Shown here: piece by piece, positions 1,237 through 64,000 of the stretch
Layout: every line of letters begins with the position of its first letter
How positions within the stretch are numbered: the first letter of the stretch is position 1
Origin: Gyrodactylus bullatarudis
Taxonomy: Eukaryota; Platyhelminthes; Monogenea; Gyrodactylidea; Gyrodactylidae
Assembly (NCBI GenBank): GCA_012064415.1
Contig: SSNU01000052.1
Location: 312,403-376,402 of the forward strand
DNA length: 64,000 nucleotides
Reading direction: 5' to 3'
Notes under the pieces: model-generated
The model's input: only the letters and a program-made list of their open reading frames with translations
What the model was told of the DNA's origin: nothing
The model's database searches: none
Position numbers and translations under genes: made by a program

Positions 1237-2318
1237 TTTAGATTTGTTGCACTAATGTTCCATTATCTTTTCAAAACACTGTTTTTATTCAAAAAGACGG
1301 GATAGCCATGGGTTCACCTCTAAGTCCTCTTTTAGCTGATATCTTTCTAGGATGGTTAGAAATGACTAAAATGTCTGATACTATCAATTCTTTCACTGAT
1401 GTTTACATCAGATATGTTGATGACACGTTTATTCTAATGAAACCCAATGTTATTACAGACAATTTTTTCTCCAAAATGAACTCGTTTCATCCTAATATTA
1501 AATTTACCATGGAGAAAGAATCTAATAATTCTTTGAGTTTCTTAGATGTAAAACTAACCAGAAAAGAGGATGGATCAATTACAAGAAATATTTACAAGAA
1601 GAAGACTGATAACGGCAAATATCTACATTATGCCAGTTTTAGTCCTATTTCACACAAAAGAGGTTTAGTAATTGGTCTAGGCAAGAGGATTAGAAGAATA
1701 GCAAGTCCAGAAGAATGGCCTAATGAGATAGAGAATTCAAAATTATGCCTAATGGAAAATGGTTACCCAGCCAGATTTGTGGACAAATTCATCAATAGAA
1801 CTGATATCACAGTTGATGAAACAAACAACACAGATGAGGCTGTGAAGACTACAGTTTTCATGAAGCTTAATTTTAAAGGTGACGGTTTTAGTAATGATGT
1901 TAGGAAAAGACTGGTTAATCTCATAGATCAACATTACGATAATATACAATTGAAAATTGTATTTAAAACACAGAGATTATTCAGTTTGATCCATAAGGAT
2001 TCACTTAAACCTGAAGAGAATACTCTATTGATTTACAAATTTCAATGCACTTGTGGGGCTTCATATATAGGACGGACTATAAGGAAACTTGCTACAAGAT
2101 CCAGTGATCATTTGAAGAAAGACACAGCGATTACAAGACATCTTAAACAGGAGAATCATGCTGCCTCAATTTCAAATTTTTCCATTCTTTATAAAAATCC
2201 TGGAGACGACAGCATAGATGTATGGGTCAAAGAGAAATTCTTTATTAACTTATACAAACCAAATCTATGCGTTCAGAAAAATTATTCATACAATCTTCAA
2301 CTACCCTGGCCGATATGA
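1237..2318 (+). pseudogene. PLE family G reverse transcriptase/GIY-YIG endonuclease, 5'-truncated
   Basis: This encodes the C-terminal half of a Penelope-like RT joined to a GIY-YIG endonuclease, enzymes that copy element RNA into a nicked target. The frame enters at ICCTNVPLSFQN, upstream of the first ATG at 1308. It contains RT motif B (DGIAMGSPLSPLLADIF), the catalytic YVDD, and LSFLDVKL. The endonuclease part has CTCGASYIGRT followed by R and DHL, then the conserved KEKFFINLYKP. The stop is at 2316-2318. The RT fingers and palm motif A are missing, so the copy is dead. It is closely related throughout to the longer copy at 54095-55864, but here motif B is intact. The protein ends soon after the endonuclease, with no long S/T/P-rich tail as in family B. 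Confidence 0.93.
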
Positions 2319-2471: not shown

Positions 2472-2517
2472 TAAAAGTGACACTACTGATGATCCTTTTA
2501 GAAATGTACATCTAGTG
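2472..2517 (+). ncRNA. Hammerhead ribozyme of PLE-G (copy G1)
   Basis: The core CUGAUGA (2486-2492) and GAAA (2501-2504) are followed by UGUACA and the cleavage dinucleotide UC (2511-2512). Stem I is CACUA (2481-2485) with UAGUG (2513-2517), five perfect pairs. Stem III is the loopless palindrome AUGUACAU, which cannot close on itself and suggests dimerisation. There is no ordinary stem II. Instead UAAAAG (2472-2477) can pair with CUUUUA (2495-2500) just before GAAA. The second G copy has UCAAAG/CUUUGA at the same positions, a compensated change. Hammerheads in PLE pLTRs are established knowledge; the upstream pairing is my inference from these copies. Confidence 0.85.
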
Positions 2518-3090: not shown

Positions 3091-3140
3091 CACAAATAAA
3101 GATCTCTATTTCGGGCATACTCATCAGTGTGATACATGCC
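3091..3140 (-). ncRNA. Hammerhead ribozyme, family H (copy H1)
   Basis: Minus strand: CUGAUGA (3127-3121) and GAAA (3112-3109), with stem I CACA (3131-3128)/UGUG (3094-3091) and a near-palindromic stem III AUAGAGAUCUUUAU. The upstream pairing segment GGCAU (3140-3136) complements AUGCC (3118-3114) just before C-GAAA. A TATA-like ATTTATAT lies directly upstream on the same strand and an ATG peptide downstream, the usual pLTR order. The same GGCAU/AUGCC pair is kept in copies H3 (60760-60804) and H4 (23469-23515), although their cores have decayed. Confidence 0.75.
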
Positions 3141-8445: not shown

Positions 8446-8496
8446 GTTGGTGTTTGGTCTGAAGAGAACCGACGAAAATAAAGCTTTATTCAACAA
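8446..8496 (+). ncRNA. Hammerhead ribozyme, PLE-A (copy A1)
   Basis: CUGAAGA (8459-8465) and GAAA (8474-8477) flank a segment containing ACCGAC (8468-8473), which complements the upstream GUUGGU (8446-8451). Stem III is the palindrome AUAAAGCUUUAU, followed by UC. Stem I, UUGGU with AACAA, has one mismatch; the A2 copy has ACCAA and pairs perfectly. The order X, stem I, core, X', GAAA, stem III, stem I' is the same as in every other family here. Confidence 0.75.
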
Positions 8497-17393: not shown

Positions 17394-17570
17394 GCTGGAT
17401 AGAAAGACGAGAGGTTTTTTGAGGTGAATAAAAACTTTTATTTTCGTCGGCTCTCTTCAGACCTTACACCGACTTTTGATAAATATATATACATACAAGA
17501 AAAATAAAGCACAGTACAGTCTAAAAACCTCTCGTCTTTCTATCCAGCATGACTGATGGTCAGCAACCTC
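17335..17570 (-). mobile_element. Solo PLE-B pLTR/ribozyme insertion with inverted arms
   Basis: A 236-bp insertion between 14-bp duplications. From the left it carries, inverted, the N-terminal peptide region, ribozyme B2 and a TATA-like stretch. It then ends with a forward copy of the start-codon region, so that 17367-17417 and 17525-17575 form about 50-bp inverted arms. No RT sequence is present. This is the smallest complete PLE-type insertion in the window and shows that the ribozyme-containing pLTR can be inserted alone. Confidence 0.85.
17422..17473 (-). ncRNA. Hammerhead ribozyme, PLE-B (copy B2)
   Basis: Minus strand: GUCGGU (17473-17468), AGGU, CUGAAGA, then GCCGAC before GAAA, then AUAAAAGUUUUUAU, UC and ACCU (17425-17422). 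Stem I is AGGU/ACCU and stem III is nearly palindromic. GUCGGU pairs with GCCGAC over six positions (one U-G). Copy B1 has GUCGAC instead, still pairing through G-U. TATATATA lies just upstream on the same strand. Confidence 0.8.
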
Positions 17571-17899: not shown

Positions 17900-20464
17900 C
17901 ATTCTAAACTGTTTTCTAGGAAACATTGCCGAACTTCTTCAAATATAATAGCTTCCTCAAAAGAACTCCGCGAGCGTTTCGATACCGTTCTCAACGATGC
18001 AAGAGTTCAATATAAACAACATAAAATAGACTTTCCCTACCTGACCTCAGACCACTACCAGGCCCTGTCAGCGCTCCGAAAAAACCCAGACGTACTGATA
18101 TGTGAACTTGACAAAGGTACTGAAATAGCAATTGTCAATGCGGAAGAATACCAACGCAAAGGCAGAGAGCTCATCTCTGACCCAAAAATGTTTAGACAAA
18201 CGAACAGTAGTGAAGTTGACAAGAGGGCCAAGAATTTCTTCGTATCAGTAAACAAAAAGATCGACTCGCTTTCGGAAAAGCAAATCATTTCCTCCAGGAC
18301 AGCCCGTAACCTCTGCCCAAAAGGACCCGGACCCTGTTTACTCTACCTACTCCCAAAAATCCACAAAGGAACCGATGACCTGAAATTCAGACCAATCCTT
18401 GACATGACTCCCAGTCCCCAGCACGGATTAGTTCAATGGCTTGCAGATGCTCTCAAACCCCTGAGAGACTTTTTATGCCCTCACTCTGTAATTAATGCCT
18501 CTGATTTCATTTCCAGACTCCGAAACAAGAACCCGTTCGAGGGGCAGATGGTCTCGTTAGACGTGACCTCCCTCTTCACCAACGTCCCACTTAGAGAAAC
18601 AGTTCAATTCATACAGGACAAACTAACGGAACACCCAGACCTCATAGAAACCGACCCCGAGGCAACGAACAAAATACCTCCAAAAGTTCTATGCTCCTTG
18701 ATCCATATGACAGTCCAGAACATTGATTTCAGATTCAATGGCTCCTACTTCCGACAAATAGATGGAGTAGCAATGGGAACCCCCCTCGGCCCAATCCTTG
18801 CAGACATCTTCCTCGCGAGCCTTGAAACCACGAAAATGGCAAAAATCATCAACGAGTGTTACCTATACATCCGATATGTTGACGATACCTTCCTCATGCT
18901 GAAAGAAGACCAAGACCCTGACGCTATCCTAGCTGAACTAAACTCAATGCACCCCAGGTTGAAATTCACCATGGAAGTAGAAAAGGACAACAGTCTCAGT
19001 TTTCTTGACGCCAAAATTCAAAAATGCACAACCACGAAAACCTTTAGCTCAAGTTTACACCGTAAACCAGGGATCCCTACCCAGTACATGCCCTTCACCA
19101 GCTTCAACCCCACAGCGACAAAAAGATCCCTAGTGAGATCCGAGTTCCTAAGGATCAAACGAGTTGTGTCAACCCACTTACAAGACGACGAAAGGAAACG
19201 CACAACTGAATTATTCCAGTCCAGCGGATTCCCAAAAGAATTCATCCGAAAACATGCAAGGATCAAAGAAAAAGACATTACAGCAACAGATGAAAAGAAG
19301 GCTCTAATCCTATCCTTACCGTTCAAAGGTGACGTGCCCAATACAATACTCAGAAACAAACTAAGCAAAATCACAGCGGACACGTTTCCCGGGTACCAAA
19401 TCCGTCACACCTCGAAAACCACCAAGCTACTGAACGATCGAAATAAGGACCGAGTACACTGGCTCAATAGGAGAAACGTCGTCTACGAGTTCAAGTGCTC
19501 CTGTGGCCTATCCTACATCGGAATGACGACGCGTACCATTGGCGAAAGGGGCAAAGAACACCTAACAGCGAACAATAAGACCTCTTCAATACAAGAACAC
19601 CTGAGGGAAACACACCATCCAGCAGGCCTTGAGAACTTCAAAATCAGATATATGGCGGACCCGAAATTCAGTAAAGAAAAATCAAAAACGATCCTGGAAA
19701 TGGCTGAGGCCAAACTTGTCAACGAAGAGAAACCAGCGCTCTGTGCTCAAAAACTCCTGGGGAGACAACTAGGATTCACTGGCACGAATTACCACAAAGC
19801 CCATAATATCATCAAGAAGGTCTCAAAACTGACTGCAAACTCAGACACAAAAATCCCTTCAGGTTTATCCTTGGCTCATACAACACCTACCTCAACATTA
19901 GTTGATAAATCTCTCTCCAAGAATAAACCCGGTTCCTCCACCCATCCTGACGACAAAAAATTGAACGATTCCACATTGAGACCCCTAATAGCCTCAACGC
20001 AACGCCCAGTTGATGATCAATTGACGACCATTCCCACAACACCAGAATCCCACTCAAAACCTCCCCGAGTGTGTGTTGATCAGACTTTCACACCCTTGCT
20101 CTGCTCGACTCAATTCACAGCCCAAAGCGATATGATCAAGGTCCCACCCAACAACTCCACCAAAATACAACACTCAACTCCAATCCCAGACATGGCAACC
20201 TCGATGGCAACAGAAACTCAAACCTCAACATTAGTTGATAACCTACCCTCCACAGGCTGCCACGTCACACAAGCCCCTACCCCAGCAACATCCAATGATC
20301 GAAAAAGATTATTTTCTCAACCGGGAATGCAAGCCTCTACTCCCATTCGAAAACGAAACGCATCGACATCATCCCAACAACCCAAAGCGAGGAGAAAACG
20401 AGGGACGAAGGCAGCAACGGGTACCCAGCAAATCCACAAATTCTTCACAGCAAACAAACAGTGA
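17900..20464 (+). CDS. PLE family B reverse transcriptase/GIY-YIG endonuclease
   Basis: An open frame of about 854 codons, the longest in the window. It is continuous from 17900, with the first good ATG at 18188 (numbering below). RT motifs: FRPILDM (68-73), palm A MVSLDVTSLFTNVPL with D125, motif B QIDGVAMGTPLGP (190-202), motif C YIRYVDDTF (227-235) and LSFLDAKI (270-277). The endonuclease begins VVYEFKCSCGLSYIGMT (431-447), with R and EHL following and EMAEAKLVNEEKP later. The last 200 residues are S/T/P-rich and end RKRGTKAATGTQQIHKFF, PIP-box-like. All catalytic residues look intact. The N-terminal domain upstream of 17900 is missing, so the insertion is 5'-truncated. GC content is clearly above the surroundings. 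Confidence 0.95.
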   Translation, partial: HSKLFSRKHCRTSSNIIASSKELRERFDTVLNDARVQYKQHKIDFPYLTSDHYQALSALRKNPDVLICELDKGTEIAIVNAEEYQRKGRELISDPKMFRQTNSSEVDKRAKNFFVSVNKKIDSLSEKQIISSRTARNLCPKGPGPCLLYLLPKIHKGTDDLKFRPILDMTPSPQHGLVQWLADALKPLRDFLCPHSVINASDFISRLRNKNPFEGQMVSLDVTSLFTNVPLRETVQFIQDKLTEHPDLIETDPEATNKIPPKVLCSLIHMTVQNIDFRFNGSYFRQIDGVAMGTPLGPILADIFLASLETTKMAKIINECYLYIRYVDDTFLMLKEDQDPDAILAELNSMHPRLKFTMEVEKDNSLSFLDAKIQKCTTTKTFSSSLHRKPGIPTQYMPFTSFNPTATKRSLVRSEFLRIKRVVSTHLQDDERKRTTELFQSSGFPKEFIRKHARIKEKDITATDEKKALILSLPFKGDVPNTILRNKLSKITADTFPGYQIRHTSKTTKLLNDRNKDRVHWLNRRNVVYEFKCSCGLSYIGMTTRTIGERGKEHLTANNKTSSIQEHLRETHHPAGLENFKIRYMADPKFSKEKSKTILEMAEAKLVNEEKPALCAQKLLGRQLGFTGTNYHKAHNIIKKVSKLTANSDTKIPSGLSLAHTTPTSTLVDKSLSKNKPGSSTHPDDKKLNDSTLRPLIASTQRPVDDQLTTIPTTPESHSKPPRVCVDQTFTPLLCSTQFTAQSDMIKVPPNNSTKIQHSTPIPDMATSMATETQTSTLVDNLPSTGCHVTQAPTPATSNDRKRLFSQPGMQASTPIRKRNASTSSQQPKARRKRGTKAATGTQQIHKFFTANKQ

Positions 20465-20580: not shown

Positions 20581-20587
20581 TGCTCAA

Positions 20588-20639
20588 GTCGGTGTAAGGT
20601 CTGAAGAGAGTCGACGAAAATAAAAGCTTTTATTCACCT
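20588..20639 (+). ncRNA. Hammerhead ribozyme, PLE-B (copy B1)
   Basis: GUCGGU (20588-20593), stem I AGGU (20597-20600), CUGAAGA (20601-20607), GUCGAC (20610-20615), GAAA (20616-20619), palindromic stem III AUAAAAGCUUUUAU, UC (20634-20635) and stem I' ACCU (20636-20639). GUCGGU pairs with GUCGAC using one G-U and one U-G pair. It lies 123 nt after the PLE-B stop codon, in the pLTR of an apparently recent copy, so it is a good candidate for activity. Confidence 0.82.
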
Positions 20640-20788: not shown

Positions 20789-20836
20789 AGTAATAAAGCT
20801 TTTATTTCACCGGTTCTCATTAGACTCTTACACCAG
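20789..20836 (-). ncRNA. Hammerhead ribozyme, family C, core mutated
   Basis: Minus strand: CUGGU (20836-20832), AGU, CUAAUGA, GA, ACCGG (20814-20810), U, GAAA, UAAAAGCUUUAUU, ACU. CUGGU pairs with ACCGG over five positions. The core is CUAAUGA instead of CUGAUGA, a change at an invariant G that should abolish cleavage. Stem I is only AGU/ACU. A relic, but the upstream pairing is preserved. Confidence 0.6.
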
Positions 20837-23468: not shown

Positions 23469-23515
23469 GGCATTTAAAAGCTGATAAGTATGCCACGAGA
23501 TATATAATATTGTTT
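23469..23515 (+). ncRNA. Hammerhead-like motif, family H (copy H4), decayed
   Basis: GGCAU (23469-23473), AAAAG, CUGAUAA (23481-23487), AUGCC (23490-23494), then GAGA in place of GAAA. The pairing GGCAU/AUGCC and the 16-nt spacing equal those of H1, while the core carries two changes. It follows the PLE tail in the same orientation, linking the H ribozyme to PLE coding sequence. Confidence 0.5.
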
Positions 23516-24707: not shown

Positions 24708-25608
24708 NNNNNNNNNNNNNNNNNNNNNNNNNNNNNNNNNNNNNNNNNNNNNNNNNNNNNNNNNNNNNNNNNNNNNNNNNNNNNNNNNNNNNNNNNNNNN
24801 NNNNNNNNNNNNNNNNNNNNNNNNNNNNNNNNNNNNNNNNNNNNNNNNNNNNNNNNNNNNNNNNNNNNNNNNNNNNNNNNNNNNNNNNNNNNNNNNNNNN
24901 NNNNNNNNNNNNNNNNNNNNNNNNNNNNNNNNNNNNNNNNNNNNNNNNNNNNNNNNNNNNNNNNNNNNNNNNNNNNNNNNNNNNNNNNNNNNNNNNNNNN
25001 NNNNNNNNNNNNNNNNNNNNNNNNNNNNNNNNNNNNNNNNNNNNNNNNNNNNNNNNNNNNNNNNNNNNNNNNNNNNNNNNNNNNNNNNNNNNNNNNNNNN
25101 NNNNNNNNNNNNNNNNNNNNNNNNNNNNNNNNNNNNNNNNNNNNNNNNNNNNNNNNNNNNNNNNNNNNNNNNNNNNNNNNNNNNNNNNNNNNNNNNNNNN
25201 NNNNNNNNNNNNNNNNNNNNNNNNNNNNNNNNNNNNNNNNNNNNNNNNNNNNNNNNNNNNNNNNNNNNNNNNNNNNNNNNNNNNNNNNNNNNNNNNNNNN
25301 NNNNNNNNNNNNNNNNNNNNNNNNNNNNNNNNNNNNNNNNNNNNNNNNNNNNNNNNNNNNNNNNNNNNNNNNNNNNNNNNNNNNNNNNNNNNNNNNNNNN
25401 NNNNNNNNNNNNNNNNNNNNNNNNNNNNNNNNNNNNNNNNNNNNNNNNNNNNNNNNNNNNNNNNNNNNNNNNNNNNNNNNNNNNNNNNNNNNNNNNNNNN
25501 NNNNNNNNNNNNNNNNNNNNNNNNNNNNNNNNNNNNNNNNNNNNNNNNNNNNNNNNNNNNNNNNNNNNNNNNNNNNNNNNNNNNNNNNNNNNNNNNNNNN
25601 NNNNNNNN
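24708..25608. other. Assembly gap (901 N)
   Basis: A run of N that begins exactly inside the left inverted repeat of the Tc1 element and ends within its transposase. Any frame spanning it is an artefact. Confidence 0.99.
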
Positions 25609-34568: not shown

Positions 34569-34619
34569 AGTGATAAAGCTTATATATTTCACCGGATCTC
34601 ATCAGACTCTTACACCGGC
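34569..34619 (-). ncRNA. Hammerhead ribozyme, PLE-D
   Basis: Minus strand: GCCGGU (34619-34614), AGU, CUGAUGA, GA, UCCGG, U, GAAA, an imperfect AU-rich stem III containing AAGCUUU, UC and ACU (34571-34569). The core is canonical. CCGG upstream pairs with CCGG before GAAA, extended by a G-U. Stem I is short (AGU/ACU), consistent with reliance on the extra pairing or on dimerisation. Confidence 0.78.
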
Positions 34620-37850: not shown

Positions 37851-37901
37851 TTGGTGAATAAAGCTTTATTTTCGTCGGTTCTCTTCAGACCAAACACCGA
37901 C
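37851..37901 (-). ncRNA. Hammerhead ribozyme, PLE-A (copy A2)
   Basis: Minus strand: GUCGGU (37901-37896), UUGGU, CUGAAGA, GA, ACCGAC, GAAA, AUAAAGCUUUAU, UC, ACCAA (37855-37851). Stem I UUGGU/ACCAA and the upstream pair GUCGGU/ACCGAC are both perfect, and stem III is a perfect palindrome. The best example of the A family. Confidence 0.8.
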
Positions 37902-39973: not shown

Positions 39974-40021
39974 CCGGGGTAGAGTCTGGAGAGACCCGGC
40001 GAAATATAACGTTTATCACTC
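39974..40021 (+). ncRNA. Hammerhead ribozyme, PLE-E, one core change
   Basis: CCGGG (39974-39978), GAGU (39982-39985), CUGGAGA (39986-39992), GA, CCCGG (39995-39999), C, GAAA (40001-40004), UAUAACGUUUA, UC, ACUC (40018-40021). Stem I GAGU/ACUC and the upstream pair CCGGG/CCCGG are perfect. The core A of CUGA is G here, which should weaken or abolish cleavage. Confidence 0.7.
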
Positions 40022-53898: not shown

Positions 53899-53944
53899 CA
53901 CCAAATGTACATTTCTCAAAGGTTCATCAGTAGTGTCTCTTTGA
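53899..53944 (-). ncRNA. Hammerhead ribozyme of PLE-G (copy G2)
   Basis: Minus strand: UCAAAG (53944-53939), CACUA, CUGAUGA, AC, CUUUGA (53921-53916), GAAA, UGUACA, UU, UGGUG (53903-53899). Stem I CACUA/UGGUG keeps five pairs through one U-G. The upstream pair UCAAAG/CUUUGA is perfect and differs from G1 at paired positions on both sides, direct evidence that this helix is maintained. Stem III is again the loopless palindrome AUGUACAU. Confidence 0.85.
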
Positions 53945-54094: not shown

Positions 54095-55864
54095 TTACAT
54101 AGGCCAAGGTAGTTGAAGGTTATAGGAATAATTCTTTTGAACACATAAGTCTGGTTTATATAAATTTATGAAGAATTTCTCCTTCACCCAAACGTCTGTA
54201 CTGTCATCACTCGGGTTTTTGTATAAAATTGAAAAATTCGAAATTGAAGCCTCATGCCCTTCCTGTCTAAGATGCCTAGTTATCGCTGTATCTTTCTTAA
54301 GGTGATCGTTCCCTCTAGTTGACAACTTTCTGATTGTACGTCCTATATAAGAAGATCCGCAGTCACATTGAAATTTATAAATCAATAGAGTCTTCTCTTC
54401 AGGTCTCAGTAAATCTTTGTGAATCAAATTGAACAATCTCTGAGTTTTAAATACAATTTTCAATTGTATGTTGTTATAATGTTGATCGATGAGATTTGTC
54501 AACTTTCTCCTTAAATCATTACTAAAACCATCTCCTTTGAAATTAAGTTTCATGAAAATTGTGGTCTTCTCAACTTCATCTGTGTTTTCAACGACATCTC
54601 TATCGACTGGTAAGTTGATAAATTTGTCCACAAATTTATTGGGATACCCATTTTCCATTAAACACAACTTCAAATTCTCTATTTCCTTTGGAATTTCTTC
54701 TGGACTCGCTATCCTTCTTATCCTCTTACTCAATCCAATTACTAGACCAACTTTATGTGAAATAGGACTAAAACTAGCAAAATGCAGATATTTGCCATTG
54801 TCCGTCTTTTTCTTGAAGATGTTTCTTTGAATTGAGCCGTCATCTCTTCTAGTTAGTTTAACGTCTAGGAAACTCAGAAAATCATTAGATTCTTTTTCCA
54901 TAGTAAATTTAATATTAGAATGAAACGAATTCATCTTTAAGAAAAAGTCATCTGATGATACATTCGGTTTCATCAAAATAAAAGTGTCGTCCACATATCT
55001 GATGTACACATCAGTGAAAGAATTAATTGTTTCAGACATTTTATTGAGTTCTAACCAACCTAAAAAGATATCAGCTAAAAGAGGACCCAAAGCTATACCG
55101 TCTTTTTGGATAAACACTTTGTTTTGAAAAGATAGAGGAACATTTGTACAACAAATCCTGATAAGGTCTGTTATTGCCTTACTCTGCATTTCAAAACCGT
55201 TATGTTCATCGATAAAAGAACTGATGATAGTTAAAGTTTCTTCTATAGGCACATTAGGAAATAAAGAACTAATATCTAAAGAAATCATCTCTTTTGTACT
55301 TATGTTTAAATCCTTAACTTTTTCAACAAATGAAAATGTATCTCTTACAACATATTTAGAATAATGTTCATGGATTGGTTTCAATATATCAATCAACCAT
55401 TTAGCTAAATTATGTTGTGGACATGACGACATATCCAATATCGGCCGAATCGGGAAAATTTCAGGAACATCTCCCTCAACTATTTTATGAGTCTTAGGAT
55501 GTAAGTATAATCTACACATCCTGGTATGTTTTTTTGCTATAAAATCCCTAGTTCTATCGGAAATTATATCTCTATCAAATAACCCCTTAGCAATTCTATA
55601 CATGAAACGTTCCATGGATTCAATTTCTTTATAATATGAAGATCTATCTCTCCCAGTATTCTCAAATTTACTTTCATCCGAAAGGAAATCTAACCCTGCC
55701 TTATAATAATCATCCTTATACATAATTACTATACCTTTTCCATTGTCAGGTTTTGTTAAAAAAATACTTTCATTAGATTTTAGTTCTTTAAGTGCTTTAA
55801 AATGTTTATTAGTAAGTAAACTAGATTTTAATGGTTTACGATCAAAACTTCTATAAATAGTCAA
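54095..55864 (-). CDS. PLE family G reverse transcriptase/GIY-YIG endonuclease
   Basis: An open frame of 589 codons (no ATG; it opens at a TTG and probably continues from upstream, in-frame residues SQPWSSKLDLL preceding it). LTKPDNGKGIVIM (37-48), IRPILDMSSCPQH (139-151), palm A EMISLDISSLFPNVPI with D197, motif B, YIRYVDDTF (288-296), LSFLDVKL (330-337), then the GIY-YIG module FQCDCGSSYIGRT (498-510) with R and DHL following, ending LPWPM. Motif B reads DGIALGPLLADIF where the G1 copy has DGIAMGSPLSPLLADIF: four residues are deleted in a conserved RT block, so RT activity is doubtful. It ends right after the endonuclease, without the long tail of B. Confidence 0.92.
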   Translation of the reverse strand: MTIYRSFDRKPLKSSLLTNKHFKALKELKSNESIFLTKPDNGKGIVIMYKDDYYKAGLDFLSDESKFENTGRDRSSYYKEIESMERFMYRIAKGLFDRDIISDRTRDFIAKKHTRMCRLYLHPKTHKIVEGDVPEIFPIRPILDMSSCPQHNLAKWLIDILKPIHEHYSKYVVRDTFSFVEKVKDLNISTKEMISLDISSLFPNVPIEETLTIISSFIDEHNGFEMQSKAITDLIRICCTNVPLSFQNKVFIQKDGIALGPLLADIFLGWLELNKMSETINSFTDVYIRYVDDTFILMKPNVSSDDFFLKMNSFHSNIKFTMEKESNDFLSFLDVKLTRRDDGSIQRNIFKKKTDNGKYLHFASFSPISHKVGLVIGLSKRIRRIASPEEIPKEIENLKLCLMENGYPNKFVDKFINLPVDRDVVENTDEVEKTTIFMKLNFKGDGFSNDLRRKLTNLIDQHYNNIQLKIVFKTQRLFNLIHKDLLRPEEKTLLIYKFQCDCGSSYIGRTIRKLSTRGNDHLKKDTAITRHLRQEGHEASISNFSILYKNPSDDSTDVWVKEKFFINLYKPDLCVQKNYSYNLQLPWPM

Positions 55865-55947
55865 AAGATCAAGTTTGGATGACCATGGCTGAGAATTCTA
55901 ATATTGACCTAAGTTTTAATAAATTTTATTATAAAACTAATTTTAGA

Positions 55948-57019: not shown

Positions 57020-58870
57020 CCCTCGCCCTATACCGGGGTCCATATGGCCCCCAATCGATTTTGAAATTGAAATTTTGATTCTGTTTCAATAGTTAAGCAA
57101 ATATTATTTTTTACTAATCCCTAAGATACTATCAAAGAATAAATACATATCTTTTCTAATGTCATCCTGTGTTTATTTGCTTAAAAATATTATTTCCAAA
57201 AAAGCATGTCACTTTCTATCAGAGGGGTCCAGGTGAAAAAAGAAAACATTTGGCTAAAAAAAGGATTATATCAGTCATATCTTATCACATCTACTATTTT
57301 ATCAAATCATGACTAGCAAGCAGACGTTCCTGAGAGCCCTAGCATCTCCTTGTTTCTTGAATCTGATGCATCGTCGGATCCTGGTTATCAAAGTTCGAGT
57401 GATAGTGAAGAAGATGATTCATTAGAGTTTGAAGAAGATGACTTCGAGGATTCCGAACAATCTGATGAAATTCTTGATGTTTCTTTCGAACCTTCAATAA
57501 GCTCCAAAGATGGTCTTATTGAGTACTCTAAGGTACCACCAGTTCTGTCAAGAAATCTGAGTCATAATATATTCCGAAGCGTTCCTGGACTTACACAACA
57601 TTCAAGAGGCAAAGTATCCGAAAGAGAATTTTTCGAACTATTCATCGATCCAATGATGATAAAGGATATTGCAAAATTTAAAAATAAATACACTAAACTT
57701 CCTAAAAAATGTATTAGAGTTAAACCGGGCGGTAAGGACTTTTTGCCTGATTACTTATGAGTAGGAGTATGAAATTTATATTTTTTCAGAAACCAGTTGA
57801 CATTTTGCTTGACCATAAATGAGTTATTTTTCATTATTTCGAGCCGAAATTTCAGCATTGGCTTAATCTTTTCATGTTTTATCTTTATGCGAATTTTTAT
57901 TCAGTTTGCTTTAGCCAAAACAAAGTTAAAATTTTTTCGTTCAATCATCATGAAATTAGCACCAATCGACACAGAATAAAAAGTTATCTAGGCTCCTCAA
58001 ATTTAGGGCTAAAATATTATTTCATCTAAGATATATAAAGGTTCAAAGACGAGATTTTTGAGTCCTTTTTACTCTATTTTGTATACCCCCCACACCCAGT
58101 CCTCAAAAGTCCAAAAGAAAAGAATTGTTTTTGTTTGTACAGTAGAGTAAGCAAATCTCATGATGTGTGATTGCCGAAAAAAGGGGGTCTTTAGAACTTT
58201 TTACCCTAGGAGACCCCATATGGATGATGACGTCACCCAACATTAGTCTTGAATGGGAAAAATGAAAAAAACTTGAATCCAAAACTTTTTACAAAAATCT
58301 CGTCTTTGAACCTTTATATATCTTAGATGAAATAATATTTTAGCCCTAAATTTGAGGAGCCTAGATAACTTTTTATTCTGTGTCGATTGGTGCTAATTTC
58401 ATGATGATTGAACGAAAAAATTTTAACTTTGTTTTGGCTAAAGCAAACTGAATAAAAATTCGCATAAAGATAAAACATGAAAAGATTAAGCCAATGCTGA
58501 AATTTCGGCTCGAAATAATGAAAAATAACTCATTTATGGTCAAGCAAAATGTCAACTGGTTTCTGAAAAAATATAAATTTCATACTCCTACTCATAAGTA
58601 ATCAGGCAAAAAAGTCCTTACCGCCCGGTTTAACTCTAATACATTTTTTAGGAAGTTTAGTGTACATTGATTTCAAAAATTCAAATAAATCCAAAATCAC
58701 TTCGCAAGAAATTTACAAATGGCTCAGAATATCTATTTTTATTGGGGTCAAGAAACAGAGAAATAGAGAATTTTGGCAAGATCAAAAATGCTATCAATTT
58801 ATGAATAATATCAAGTCACATTCAAGATATTGCTATCTAATAAAATGGCCCGAAACAGAAAGGGCGAGGG
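57020..58870 (+). mobile_element. piggyBac element, deleted, with nested foldback insertion
   Basis: Terminal CCCTCGCCCT (57020-57029) and AGGGCGAGGG (58861-58870) flanked by TTAA on both sides: the piggyBac signature. Without the 973-bp foldback at 57690-58662 it is about 876 bp, too short for a full transposase, and only an N-terminal coding portion remains. It therefore depends on transposase from elsewhere. Confidence 0.92.
57690..58662. mobile_element. 973-bp foldback element with 371-bp arms
   Basis: Begins CACTAAACTTCCTAAAAAAT and ends in its reverse complement, flanked by TA (57688-57689 and 58663-58664). Arms 57690-58060 and 58292-58662 are nearly identical (a one-base difference in a T run), with a 231-bp single-copy centre. 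No protein is encoded; the identical 60-codon frames in both arms are a by-product. A TA duplication suggests mobilisation by a Tc1/mariner-type transposase. A transcript would fold into a very long hairpin. Confidence 0.92.
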
Positions 58871-60759: not shown

Positions 60760-60804
60760 AAATAAGTACTTTATTTCAGGCATACTCGTCATTCTTTACA
60801 TGCC
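60760..60804 (-). ncRNA. Hammerhead-like motif, family H (copy H3), decayed
   Basis: Minus strand: GGCAU (60804-60800), AAUGACGAGU, AUGCC (60783-60779), U, GAAA (60777-60774), AUAAAGUACUUAU. The leading C of the core is lost. GGCAU/AUGCC and its spacing match H1, and a TATATAT stretch precedes it on the same strand. Confidence 0.5.
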
Positions 60805-61944: not shown

Positions 61945-63003
61945 TATTAATATTAATCTTTATTGTCTAAATTATATCATACAAATGAAAAAAGGAAATT
62001 TTTATAGGTTCTCTAAATACTTATACAACTCTTTTTTGGAAAATGAAATGTTTTTTCTTGTCAGTTCATTAAAGAGACTGGGAAGTCTATCAAAAAAATA
62101 TAAAGTTTTCAATGAGTTATTGATAGGTCTCTGAAGTTTAATATTCTTGTTACGTAAGACTCTCTGGTTCAATTTCGCATTCCAAAGTGAGGAGATATTA
62201 TCATTAGCAAGTTTTAGGCATCTAAAATATCTTCGATGTCTCAGTAACTTGATTTTATCGAAACCACTCGAAGGTCTCGAACTCAGTTTGAGGAATCTTT
62301 TTTGAATTGCATCAAGGATAAATGAAGTAGAAAGTGATGCTGGACTCCAGATAGCAGAGCAGTATTCCACTGTTGGTCGAGCGTAATTCGTAAATAAGAA
62401 AATCTTCATCTTGTAAGTTTTGGCAATTCTATGAATATGTAAAGTGCGCGCTGCAAATAAATTGGCAATGGATTTAATATATTTATCAAAACGCAAGTTA
62501 AAGTCATATTCCAAGCCAAGATCACGAACCATAAATTTTCTCTTAAAAACAAAATTGTCAATGCCAAGATTAAAATTCGTTGTTGGACTAAGAAAGGGGA
62601 CAAGATAGAAACTTTTATCAAAATTAATTTTTAGGGAACACGAGTCAAGTATTTCTATTAAATCATTTATGAATGAGGTAACAAGTTCATTATCAACATA
62701 ATTATTAGGGAATGAAAAGCAGATTTTTAAGTCATCTGCAAATTTAAACAGTTTAATATGTTCATTGTTGGATCGAATTCTTGAAAAGATTAAGTTGAAT
62801 AAAAGTGGACCAATACGACTCCCCTGAGGTACCCCCGAGGTAATCTCGTAGGCTGAAGAGGATTTATCATTAGAGGATACAAATTGATATCTGCATGAAA
62901 GGAATAAATAGGTCACATTTAACAAATTTTTGTCACAAACATATTCAATAAGAATATTCATAATAGATGAAAAAGAAATAGAATCAAATGCTTGAATTAA
63001 TGA
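61945..63003 (-). mobile_element. CR1/Jockey-like LINE, 5'-truncated
   Basis: Minus strand: truncated inside RT at about 63003, coding to 62002, then a short 3' end with AATAAAG and a microsatellite-like ATTAATATTAATATTAAT tail (61962-61942). The same family as 48602-50740. The 5' truncation point meets the PLE-F tail. Confidence 0.88.
62002..63003 (-). pseudogene. LINE ORF2 C-terminal half: RT palm to end
   Basis: AFDSISFSSIMNILIEYV, EITSGVPQGSRIGPLLFNLI (motif B), HIKLFKFADDLKICFSF (FADD box with both aspartates), FMVRDLGLEYDFNLRFDKYI, NYARPTVEYCSAIWSP, IQKRFLKLSSRPSSGFDKIK and HRRYFRCLKLANDNISSL, ending KKELYKYLENL. The reading frame is uninterrupted, so the copy is younger than the one at 48602. 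The open frame extends upstream to 63168 only by running antisense through the PLE-F tail. Confidence 0.92.
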
Positions 63004-63009
63004 TTGAAC

Positions 63010-63188
63010 CAAAAATTTTATCAGAACGAATGGATTCCTAAAGTGCAAAGAGGGCCCAAGTCTGGAGAAGAAACGGAAGTAAAGCCGCCTAGAAACAGGA
63101 TTTTCAACTCGTCCCCCTCCCTGAGCAGCGAACCTTTGAACCAATGGAAGGGCAGAAAAATAATGCAACCTACCTATATAAATTTAGT
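63010..63188 (+). other. PLE-F tail and pLTR promoter-like region
   Basis: GC-richer than its surroundings, like PLE-B. It contains AACCAATGGAAGG and a TATA-like CCTATATAAATTT (63171-63183) just before ribozyme F. Coding frame uncertain; fragments such as SLEKKRK and RLETGFSTRPP suggest a decayed basic tail. Promoter role inferred from layout. Confidence 0.45.
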
Positions 63189-63237
63189 CCGGGATTAGGT
63201 CTGATGAGACCCGGCGAAATAAAACCTTTATCACTTA
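63189..63237 (+). ncRNA. Hammerhead ribozyme, PLE-F
   Basis: CCGGG (63189-63193), UAGGU (63196-63200), CUGAUGA (63201-63207), GA, CCCGG (63210-63214), C, GAAA (63216-63219), UAAAACCUUUA, UC (63231-63232), ACUUA (63233-63237). Stem I UAGGU/ACUUA has five pairs with one G-U, and stem III a four-pair stem with a small loop. The core is fully canonical, and CCGGG/CCCGG is perfect with a 16-nt spacing. The best candidate for a cleaving monomer. Confidence 0.87.
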
Positions 63238-63309: not shown

Positions 63310-64000
63310 TGCGAAAAGATTCAAGTAGAATTCTCTTAAGCAATTCTTCCATTTATTTCACTATATTTAATAAACAATTATAGAGGTAAATATTCCTGGG
63401 CGACTAACTAATAGAGAGATAGATTTTGCAAACTATGGATTTCTAGCCATAGTCAGAATACAAATGGGCTAGAATTTTTGTCTCCTTATCATTTTTAATA
63501 GATTGTAAATGAAGTCTTATGAGTCAACTATTTCTTTCGAATCATCAGGCCAACAGAAAATATTCCCTTGAGAAAAATCATGTATGAATACATGGCCTAA
63601 AAAAGTGAATATTCTTTAGAAGGTTCTAAACCAAATGAAATGACGAGCTCTAATAATTCTGAACTACATTTTAGCACAGGGACACTTGATATAATTTTGA
63701 GAAATTAATGTAATATTGACAAGGTGATTTGCTCTCACCTAAATCTAGTTGACATGAAGAGGTTGAGTTAAACTATCTGGTTCCAAGAAAATTCGGAATC
63801 GACAAAAATTTTGAGCTCAAAAGTTGAAAAAGTAGACATTGGGCGTATTTCCGAGATTCAAAACAACTGCCCAATTTTGGCCAGATTGATTTTTTTCAGG
63901 AATTTTTTTTATTTTACCACCTAATAGCCTCATTTTATCATAGAATTTAGAAAAATTAATTTTTTTACTGATTTTCCGGGGAAAAACATTGAGAATAGTA
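63310..64000. other. AT-rich stretch with an FB-like piece
   Basis: 63780-63950 resembles part of an FB arm (AAATTTTGAGCTCAAAAGTTG and TTTTTTTCAGGAATTTTTTT). No gene seen. Confidence 0.4.

What the first reader, a model, noticed from the sequence alone, without database searches (positions are those of the whole stretch)
2472..2517. Covarying upstream helix: a pseudoknotted hammerhead architecture shared by all pLTR ribozyme families
In most pLTR hammerheads here the 8-nt segment between CUGANGA and GAAA cannot form a normal stem II. It instead complements a segment 5' of stem I at a constant 16-17 nt distance: UAAAAG/CUUUUA (2472, G1), UCAAAG/CUUUGA (53939, G2), GGCAU/AUGCC (3140, 60804, 23469), GUCGGU/ACCGAC (37901), GUCGGU/GCCGAC (17473), CUGGU/ACCGG (20836), CCGGG/CCCGG (39974, 63189). 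Order X, stem I, core, X', GAAA, stem III, stem I' makes X-X' cross stem I, a pseudoknot. Two copies of one family changing both sides is strong evidence. Hammerheads in PLEs are known (Cervera and De la Peña; Luense, Weinberg and Breaker); whether this helix has been described I cannot say.
Basis: partly seen in the sequence, partly recalled or inferred. Interest (0 to 1): 0.85.

Follow-up and report, generated by a model that had tools for sequence, protein, structure and literature searches.

The report
Pseudoknotted hammerhead ribozymes in flatworm retrotransposons
Thousands of tiny self-cutting RNA motifs in the Penelope-type jumping genes of a fish-parasitic flatworm appear to hold their shape with a short helix made by an upstream strand, in place of the usual second stem; a similar trick is known from another hammerhead form, but here it is simpler.

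Summary
In Penelope-like elements (PLEs) of this Gyrodactylus-like genome, the 8-nt segment between CUGANGA and GAAA pairs with a strand just 5' of stem I. One pattern for this core finds 3817 copies (reversed control 23), and the segment is almost always exactly 8 nt. In 53 copies of one superfamily, pairs 3-7 covary beyond all 1000 replicates of a tree-aware null, about as strongly as stem I. All 16 recurrent segment types pair with their own upstream strand (0 of 10,000 permutations do as well). A normal stem II is not available. Low-copy variants of one family are mostly uncompensated.

The architecture is not new in kind. A pseudoknot that replaces helix II, with an 8-nt segment, is known from the pseudoknot hammerhead (Weinberg 2015; crystal Zhan 2024), and I found copies in viral contigs. 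New here: no helix IV, a link of about 1-4 nt to stem I, often palindromic stem III, and a home in animal PLEs, whose hammerheads reviews call minimal and without tertiary contacts. The key PLE paper (Luense 2017) could not be read, so priority is uncertain. Cleavage was not measured and only one genome could be tested. Verdict: new variant of a known kind.

The parts
2472..2477 (+). X, upstream pseudoknot strand UAAAAG (copy G1)
   Evidence: sequence; covariation
2481..2485 (+). stem I 5' strand CACUA
   Evidence: pairs with 2513-2517; stem I covaries
2486..2492 (+). hammerhead core CUGAUGA
2493..2500 (+). 8-nt segment in place of stem II; nt 3-8 (2495-2500, CUUUUA) pair with X
2501..2504 (+). 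GAAA (G12 A13 A14 A15.1)
2504..2511 (+). palindromic stem III AUGUACAU
2512..2513 (+). predicted cleavage site (after C17 at 2512)
   Evidence: hammerhead rule; inference
2513..2517 (+). stem I 3' strand UAGUG
1242..2318 (+). PLE open frame 5' of the ribozyme: reverse transcriptase plus C-terminal YIGRT GIY-YIG-like motif
   Evidence: RVT_1 24.1 bits, below Pfam cut-off 29.6; motif
53939..53944 (-). X UCAAAG (copy G2)
53916..53923 (-). X' segment ACCUUUGA; CUUUGA pairs with UCAAAG
54095..55897 (-). PLE open frame 5' of G2: reverse transcriptase plus GIY-YIG-like motif
   Evidence: RVT_1 28.8 bits, just below cut-off 29.6; motif
3136..3140 (-). X GGCAU
3113..3120 (-). X' segment GUAUGCCC
37896..37901 (-). 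X GUCGGU
37874..37881 (-). X' segment GAACCGAC
17468..17473 (-). X GUCGGU, inverted ribozyme copy upstream of the PLE frame at 17900
17446..17453 (-). X' segment GAGCCGAC
17900..20464 (+). PLE open frame (RVT_1 above cut-off, YIG-type motif; named relatives mostly flatworm proteins)
20588..20593 (+). X GUCGGU, 3' of the PLE frame
20608..20615 (+). X' segment GAGUCGAC
63189..63193 (+). X CCGGG
63208..63215 (+). X' segment GACCCGGC
34615..34619 (-).
34591..34598 (-). X' segment GAUCCGGU
8446..8451 (+).
8466..8473 (+). X' segment GAACCGAC
60804..60804 (-). core-mutated copy (AUGACGA core), X/X' GGCAU/AUGCC kept
23469..23469 (+). core-mutated copy (CUGAUAA core, GAAA also changed), X/X' kept
20836..20836 (-). 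core-mutated copy (CUAAUGA core), X/X' kept with G.U
39974..39974 (+). core-mutated copy (CUGGAGA core), X/X' CCGGG/CCCGG kept

Best explanation
These are pseudoknot hammerhead ribozymes in Penelope-like elements. Stem II is cut down to at most one base pair (X' nt 1 with nt 8, the 10.1-11.1 pair). The loop, nt 3-7 of the 8-nt segment, forms a 5-6 bp helix with a strand X lying about 1-4 nt 5' of stem I. That helix sits where stem II would be, next to and parallel with stem I, and locks the core for cleavage after position 17. Stem III is short and often palindromic, so the active form may be a dimer in which two transcripts share stem III, each keeping its own X-X' helix. Shown here: the covarying pairing, its register, the fixed 8-nt length, the PLE frames beside three copies, the palindromes. 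Inferred: RNA folding, the place of the helix in three dimensions, cleavage, dimer form, a role in processing PLE transcripts.
For: N8 occurs 961 times with GAAATGTAC, against 6 for N2-7 and 23 for N9-30, both with GAAATGTACA. Tree-aware null on 53 copies: pairs 3-7 score 1454 against a null maximum of 633, stem I 1-4 scores 988 against 704. Of 13 registers only the proposed one has raised pairing and the largest score; the next, offset 8, scores 623 with 2 of 1000 replicates reaching it and no raised pairing. Sixteen recurrent X' types: own-X score 5.44, swapped 2.63, 0 of 10,000 permutations. Duplex energy -4.50 own, -1.87 shuffled. The crystallised PK hammerhead (a designed construct) has helix II replaced by a pseudoknot and the 8-nt segment GACUGGAC. 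Viral contigs with that motif: 12 of 15 rows (9 of 11 distinct upstream strings) carry CCAG upstream. Others showed for a type II hammerhead with one-base-pair stem II that its 6-bp pseudoknot is needed, with compensatory rescue (PMC3088659 passages).
Against: No cleavage data. Of 15 low-copy GUCGGU-family places fetched, none has a Watson-Crick compensation, 4 keep a G.U and 11 are broken; one further copy, L032, is compensated. L008 and L019 have lost X. The X-to-nt-8 pair and the 1-8 pair are not supported by covariation in the superfamily tested. No helix IV. A single-pair G-test reached E < 0.05 for one helix pair only. The null model is my own script, not R-scape.
Confidence: 0.85

Rival explanations
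1. X is a true replacement for the 5' strand of stem II: nt 8 of X' pairs with the first base of X as the 10.1-11.1 pair, giving 6 bp, and nt 1-2 only bridge the deep groove. This would break block C and lie outside the six published block orders.
For: Six-bp pairing including nt 8 in the UAAAAG, UUAAAG, UCAAAG, UUUAUG, UUGAAG and GUCGGU types. Types with A/A or U/U at 1-8 (4 of 16) have no standard closing pair. Ideal A-form geometry gives 10.4 A across 6 bp, within reach of 2 nt (helix parameters and strand sense recalled).
Against: The nt-8 pair shows no covariation in the superfamily. 12 of 16 recurrent types can form a 1-8 pair. The crystal of the related form has G10.1-C11.1 paired.
Confidence: 0.25
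2. X and X' pair in trans, between the two strands of a dimer or between neighbouring copies, rather than within one strand.
For: Often palindromic stem III (20 of 33 distinct segments hold a palindrome of 6 nt or more, shuffled 29%); PLE hammerheads are reported to cleave as dimers (title of Luense 2017, not read).
Against: X-X' spacing within a copy is nearly fixed at 16-17 nt, which pairing in trans would not need.
Confidence: 0.12
3. The complementarity serves something else, such as reverse transcriptase or endonuclease recognition of the element's terminus.
For: A ribozyme copy also lies in inverted order 5' of a PLE frame; a PLE study found cleavage not needed for insertion in vitro (PMC11167929 passages); four core-mutated window copies keep the pairing.
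Against: The paired strand is exactly the hammerhead's stem II site, with fixed length 8; most of the listed window copies have an intact core.
Confidence: 0.06
4. Common descent plus low complexity creates apparent complementarity by chance.
For: AT-rich genome; families are related.
Against: Tree-aware null and register controls; permutation.
Confidence: 0.01

Closest known systems
Pseudoknot-containing (pistol-like) hammerhead: Weinberg et al. 2015 (not held), crystal Zhan et al. 2024, PMC11300833 (passages and Methods section read)
   Same: CUGAUGA, then an 8-nt segment (GACUGGAC in the designed crystal construct), then GAAA; the inner nt form a pseudoknot helix with an upstream strand and replace helix II; order X, helix I, core, X', GAAA, helix III
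   Different: There X is in the loop of helix IV, followed by an A-rich linker that makes a triplex; here there is no helix IV and X is about 1-4 nt from stem I. There the pseudoknot is 4 Watson-Crick pairs with A:A and G:A caps; here 5-6 Watson-Crick or G.U pairs.
Type II hammerhead with loop I pseudoknot and one-base-pair stem II (Perreault et al. 2011, PMC3088659, passages)
   Same: Pseudoknot between a loop and a flanking tail takes over from a stable stem II; authors report pseudoknots in about 40% of hammerheads and in all three types
   Different: There loop I pairs with the 3' tail of stem II; here loop II pairs with the 5' tail of stem I (type I order)
Minimal type I hammerheads of PLEs and Terminons (Cervera and De la Pena 2014; Luense et al. 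2017; neither held)
   Same: Location in PLEs, type I order, very short stem III, dimer behaviour reported
   Different: Reviews (PMC6155905, PMC7761336, passages) describe them as lacking helix III or the tertiary interactions; a PLE hammerhead of Anolis is said to have stem II and loop II (PMC11167929, passages)
Non-circularly permuted hammerheads, types SGC, CSG, GCS (Eckert et al. 2023, PMC10085705, sections 13 and 15)
   Same: Pseudoknotted connectivity; in type SGC stems I and II are joined by a short linker
   Different: Their blocks C, G and S stay intact and are reordered; here block order is C-G-S (type I) with an extra upstream strand
Classical Sm-alpha-like type I hammerhead (Rfam RF00163)
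   Same: Same core; occurs in this genome too
   Different: Has a real 4-bp stem II (GUCC/GGAC); several copies lie beside tRNA-like sequence

Membership tests
Hammerhead ribozyme | CUGANGA and GAAA core, A15.1-U16.1, H17, stem I pairing | tested here: met
   stem I covariation
Hammerhead ribozyme | self-cleavage | not testable with these tools
   no assay
Hammerhead ribozyme | stem II hairpin of 2 bp or more | tested here: not met
   2-7 pair possible in 9 of 75 unique rows, with 1-8 as well in 6, and in 2 of 16 recurrent types; no covariation
Pseudoknot-containing (pistol-like) hammerhead | helix II replaced by a pseudoknot between the CUGANGA-GAAA segment and a strand 5' of helix I | tested here: met
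   pairing and covariation; the fold itself is inferred
Pseudoknot-containing (pistol-like) hammerhead | 8-nt segment closed by G10.1-C11.1 | tested here: inconclusive
   length 8 met; standard 1-8 pair possible in 12 of 16 types, not covarying in one superfamily
Pseudoknot-containing (pistol-like) hammerhead | helix IV around X and an A-rich linker | tested here: not met
   X ends 7-8 nt before the core, mostly taken by stem I, so no room for a 3' strand of helix IV; viral-contig copies have room for it and many show it
PLE-associated minimal hammerhead | lies by a PLE reverse transcriptase / GIY-YIG frame | tested here: met
   three frames in the window, X starting 123, 150 and 153 nt 3' of the stop codon; not tested for other copies
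PLE-associated minimal hammerhead | short stem III, dimer | tested here: inconclusive
   short, often palindromic stem III; dimer not testable
Eckert permutations SGC, CSG, GCS | non-circular order of blocks C, G, S | tested here: not met
   order is C-G-S; block definitions
Rfam Hammerhead_1 (RF00163) | match at gathering score | tested here: not met
   no match in the window; no hammerhead match for nine PLE loci up to E 5

The most novel reading that the evidence does not exclude
The PLE hammerheads that the literature calls minimal and without tertiary contacts are, as a class, pseudoknot hammerheads whose stabilising strand lies just outside the usual motif boundary. Constructs that start at stem I would cut it off. 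The animal form has no helix IV and arose independently of the form seen in viral contigs.
Probability: 0.35. Interest if true: 0.75.

Novelty: new variant of a known kind. Interest (0 to 1): 0.58.

Why it matters
Reviews state that PLE hammerheads lack the contacts that make natural hammerheads fast and that their role is a mystery. An upstream pseudoknot strand would supply those contacts, explain why stem II could be lost, and mean that assays or motif searches that begin at stem I see a crippled ribozyme. A related form is reported as more than ten times faster than the extended hammerhead under the same conditions (PMC11300833). The genome gives at least 16 natural X/X' types for testing.

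Tried and rejected
Rfam gave no hammerhead match for the PLE copies. PLE reverse transcriptase was not confirmed in viral contigs, so no second animal species could be tested. A normal stem II (1-8 and 2-7) was tested and rejected. Pairs at nt 8 and nt 1-2 were tested and not supported. The forward test on low-copy variants mostly failed and is reported as such. The single-pair G-test had one pair below E = 0.05 (-12/6, E = 0.0025; the largest null value, 76.3, slightly exceeds the observed 76.1); I then used the helix-level score, chosen after seeing that result. Two further patterns in viral contigs found nothing.

Limits of samples: the 53 sequences were fetched partly for diversity of X' and partly as rare variants, so they are not a random sample; the 100 rows are the first in contig order. 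The 16 recurrent types are X' seen 3 or more times in those rows plus 97 ribozyme copies parsed (the two overlap), each represented by its commonest upstream strand, best of three registers. In one search the stem III segments come from a parse that prefers paired ends, and many loci were fetched by TGTAC, so the palindrome excess is only suggestive.

Full report
What was checked. The window lies in a 77.3 Mb genome. The genome's mitochondrial COX1 is 89% identical to a cluster named after a Gyrodactylus, so the host is a Gyrodactylus-like monogenean flatworm. Open frames 1242-2318 (+), 17900-20464 (+) and 54095-55897 (-) carry a reverse transcriptase match (the second above, the other two below Pfam's cut-off) and a C-terminal YIG-type motif. 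Named relatives of the 854-aa frame near the top of the list are mostly flatworm proteins at 30-36% identity. X of a sense ribozyme starts 153, 123 and 150 nt 3' of these three stop codons.

The motif. A simple core pattern has 18 matches in the window, 4.7 expected, largest shuffle 12. One search finds seven intact hammerheads with stem I of at least 4 bp, all with exactly 8 nt between CUGANGA and GAAA (an eighth hit, at 63548 on the minus strand with 7 nt, is probably chance). At 2472-2517 the order is X UAAAAG, UGA, stem I CACUA, CUGAUGA, UC CUUUUA, GAAA, palindromic stem III AUGUACAU, C17, stem I UAGUG. 20601+, 34605- and 8459+ were not on its list.

Abundance and length. The pattern CTGANGA-N8-GAAATGTAC has 961 matches in the genome and 0 for the reversed pattern. 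N2-7 gives 6 and N9-30 gives 23, both with one more fixed base. Other families: 667, 915, and 400 with 1 control match; these patterns overlap in part. The general pattern gives 3817 against 23. So a fixed 8-nt segment is the rule. A hairpin stem II is not available: nt 2 and 7 can pair in only 9 of 75 unique rows.

Unbiased pairing test. Of the first 100 hits, 63 have all five pairs 3-7 at one of two registers. Among 75 unique rows it is 38, against a shuffled mean of 7.8 and maximum of 18 in 2000 shuffles. Some misses look like chance matches or decayed copies. Mean duplex energy is -4.50 kcal/mol with the row's own X' and -1.87 on shuffling. Sixteen X' types seen at least three times have a mean helix score of 5.44 with their own X (range 4.5-6) and 2.63 with other types; no permutation of 10,000 reached the observed sum. 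14 of 16 score at least 5, and so do 29 of 240 swapped pairs.

Covariation with relatedness taken into account. For 53 copies of the TGTAC superfamily a tree was built from flanks that leave out the ribozyme. Changes were re-placed at random on the tree 1000 times. At the proposed register 258 of 318 cells pair (0 of 1000 replicates reach this, 1 of 1000 in the repeat), and the double-change score is 1454 (null maximum 927, 733). Among the 12 other registers none has raised pairing; in the score, offset 8 reaches 623 (2 of 1000 replicates as high) and offset 0 reaches 378 (16 of 1000), far below 1454. For nt 3-7 alone: 225 of 265 cells, score 1454 against a null maximum of 633. Stem I 1-4 as positive control: 190 of 212, 988 against 704. 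Pair 6 occurs as AU, GC, UA and CG (27, 11, 4, 4 of 53). Pair 8, pairs 1-2 and the stem II pairs 1-8 and 2-7 are not supported there. A single-pair G-test had been weaker: of the helix pairs only pair 6 reached E < 0.05 (0.0025).

Results against. A forward test on low-copy variants of the GUCGGU family mostly failed. Of 15 places fetched (L360-L374), none has a Watson-Crick compensation, 4 keep a G.U and 11 are broken; one earlier copy, L032, has GUUGG with CCAAC (1 of 5 CCAAC copies). In the same call L376 has CCAGG with CCUGG where its relatives have CCGGG with CCCGG, while L375 and L378 do not form the full helix. This fits decay of dead copies, but it is not support. L008 and L019 have no X.

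How it works. The likely fold is a pseudoknot hammerhead. In the crystal of the known form, helix II is replaced by a 6-bp pseudoknot helix, with a G10.1-C11.1 pair in its short stem, coaxial with helix III and next to helix I; its rate was 16 per min (PMC11300833, passages and Methods section). Its 8-nt segment, in a designed construct, is GACUGGAC. In viral contigs the exact motif CTGANGAGACTGGACGAAA is in 15 stretches; 12 of 15 rows (9 of 11 distinct upstream strings) have CCAG upstream, many inside a small hairpin with an A-rich linker. The PLE form keeps the 8-nt loop and the upstream strand but has no helix IV: X ends 7-8 nt before the core, most of which is stem I. Twelve of 16 types can form the 1-8 pair. 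For the rest a 6-bp helix with a 2-nt crossing is sterically plausible on ideal A-form geometry (parameters and strand sense recalled). Perreault et al. [quoted passage not shown]

Dimer. Twenty of 33 distinct stem III segments (copies with stem I of 4 bp or more) hold a perfect palindrome of at least 6 nt, against 29% in shuffles. The parse prefers paired ends and many copies were fetched by the word TGTAC, so this is only suggestive. Centres such as GUAC, GCGC, ACGU, AGCU, GGCC and GAUC differ but remain self-complementary, as expected if two strands pair. This fits the dimer claim in the title of Luense 2017, which I could not read.

Built-in contrast. The same genome has 34 matches to a classical hammerhead with a true GUCC/GGAC stem II. 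Several of the 16 loci fetched lie next to a tRNA B-box-like sequence, as in Sm-alpha SINEs (B box and Sm-alpha are recalled), and the one tested matches Rfam Hammerhead_1 below its cut-off.

Known or new. Reviews call PLE hammerheads minimal, lacking helix III or tertiary contacts (PMC6155905 and PMC7761336, passages). Eckert et al. list six block orders and assume unbroken blocks (PMC10085705, sections 13 and 15). Ten searches of the open-access library, seen as listings, and passages or sections of nine papers showed no description of an upstream pseudoknot in PLE hammerheads. The two primary PLE papers and Weinberg 2015 are not held. Weinberg 2015 and Luense 2017 share authors (reference lists), so the upstream helix may have been seen by them. 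I therefore file it as a new variant of the pseudoknot hammerhead, with priority uncertain.

Noticed in passing
L381-L396 (34 places): Classical hammerheads with a 4-bp stem II, several beside tRNA-like sequence (B-box-like GGTTCAAATCC just upstream), in the same genome.
   Followed up: partly
L401-L415: IMG/VR viral contigs carry natural pseudoknot hammerheads with a helix IV hairpin and the 8-nt GACUGGAC segment; in L406 stem III is palindromic too. Hosts not checked.
   Followed up: partly
17422-17475 and 20586-20639: Inverted ribozyme-bearing repeats flank the PLE frame 17900-20464 (54 nt, 96% complementary); several ribozyme copies in the genome lists also come as close inverted pairs.
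   Followed up: no
stem III of many copies, e.g. 2504-2511: Stem III centres differ between families but stay self-complementary, which a hairpin loop would not require; points to a dimer.
   Followed up: partly
57740-58060 and 58292-58612: Perfect 321-bp inverted repeat with a 231-nt spacer.
   Followed up: no
62005-63183: Reverse transcriptase frame without the PLE C-terminal YIG motif on the minus strand, starting 6 nt from a ribozyme on the plus strand.
   Followed up: no
24708-25608: Run of N; the six-frame open frames listed there are an artefact of it.
   Followed up: yes
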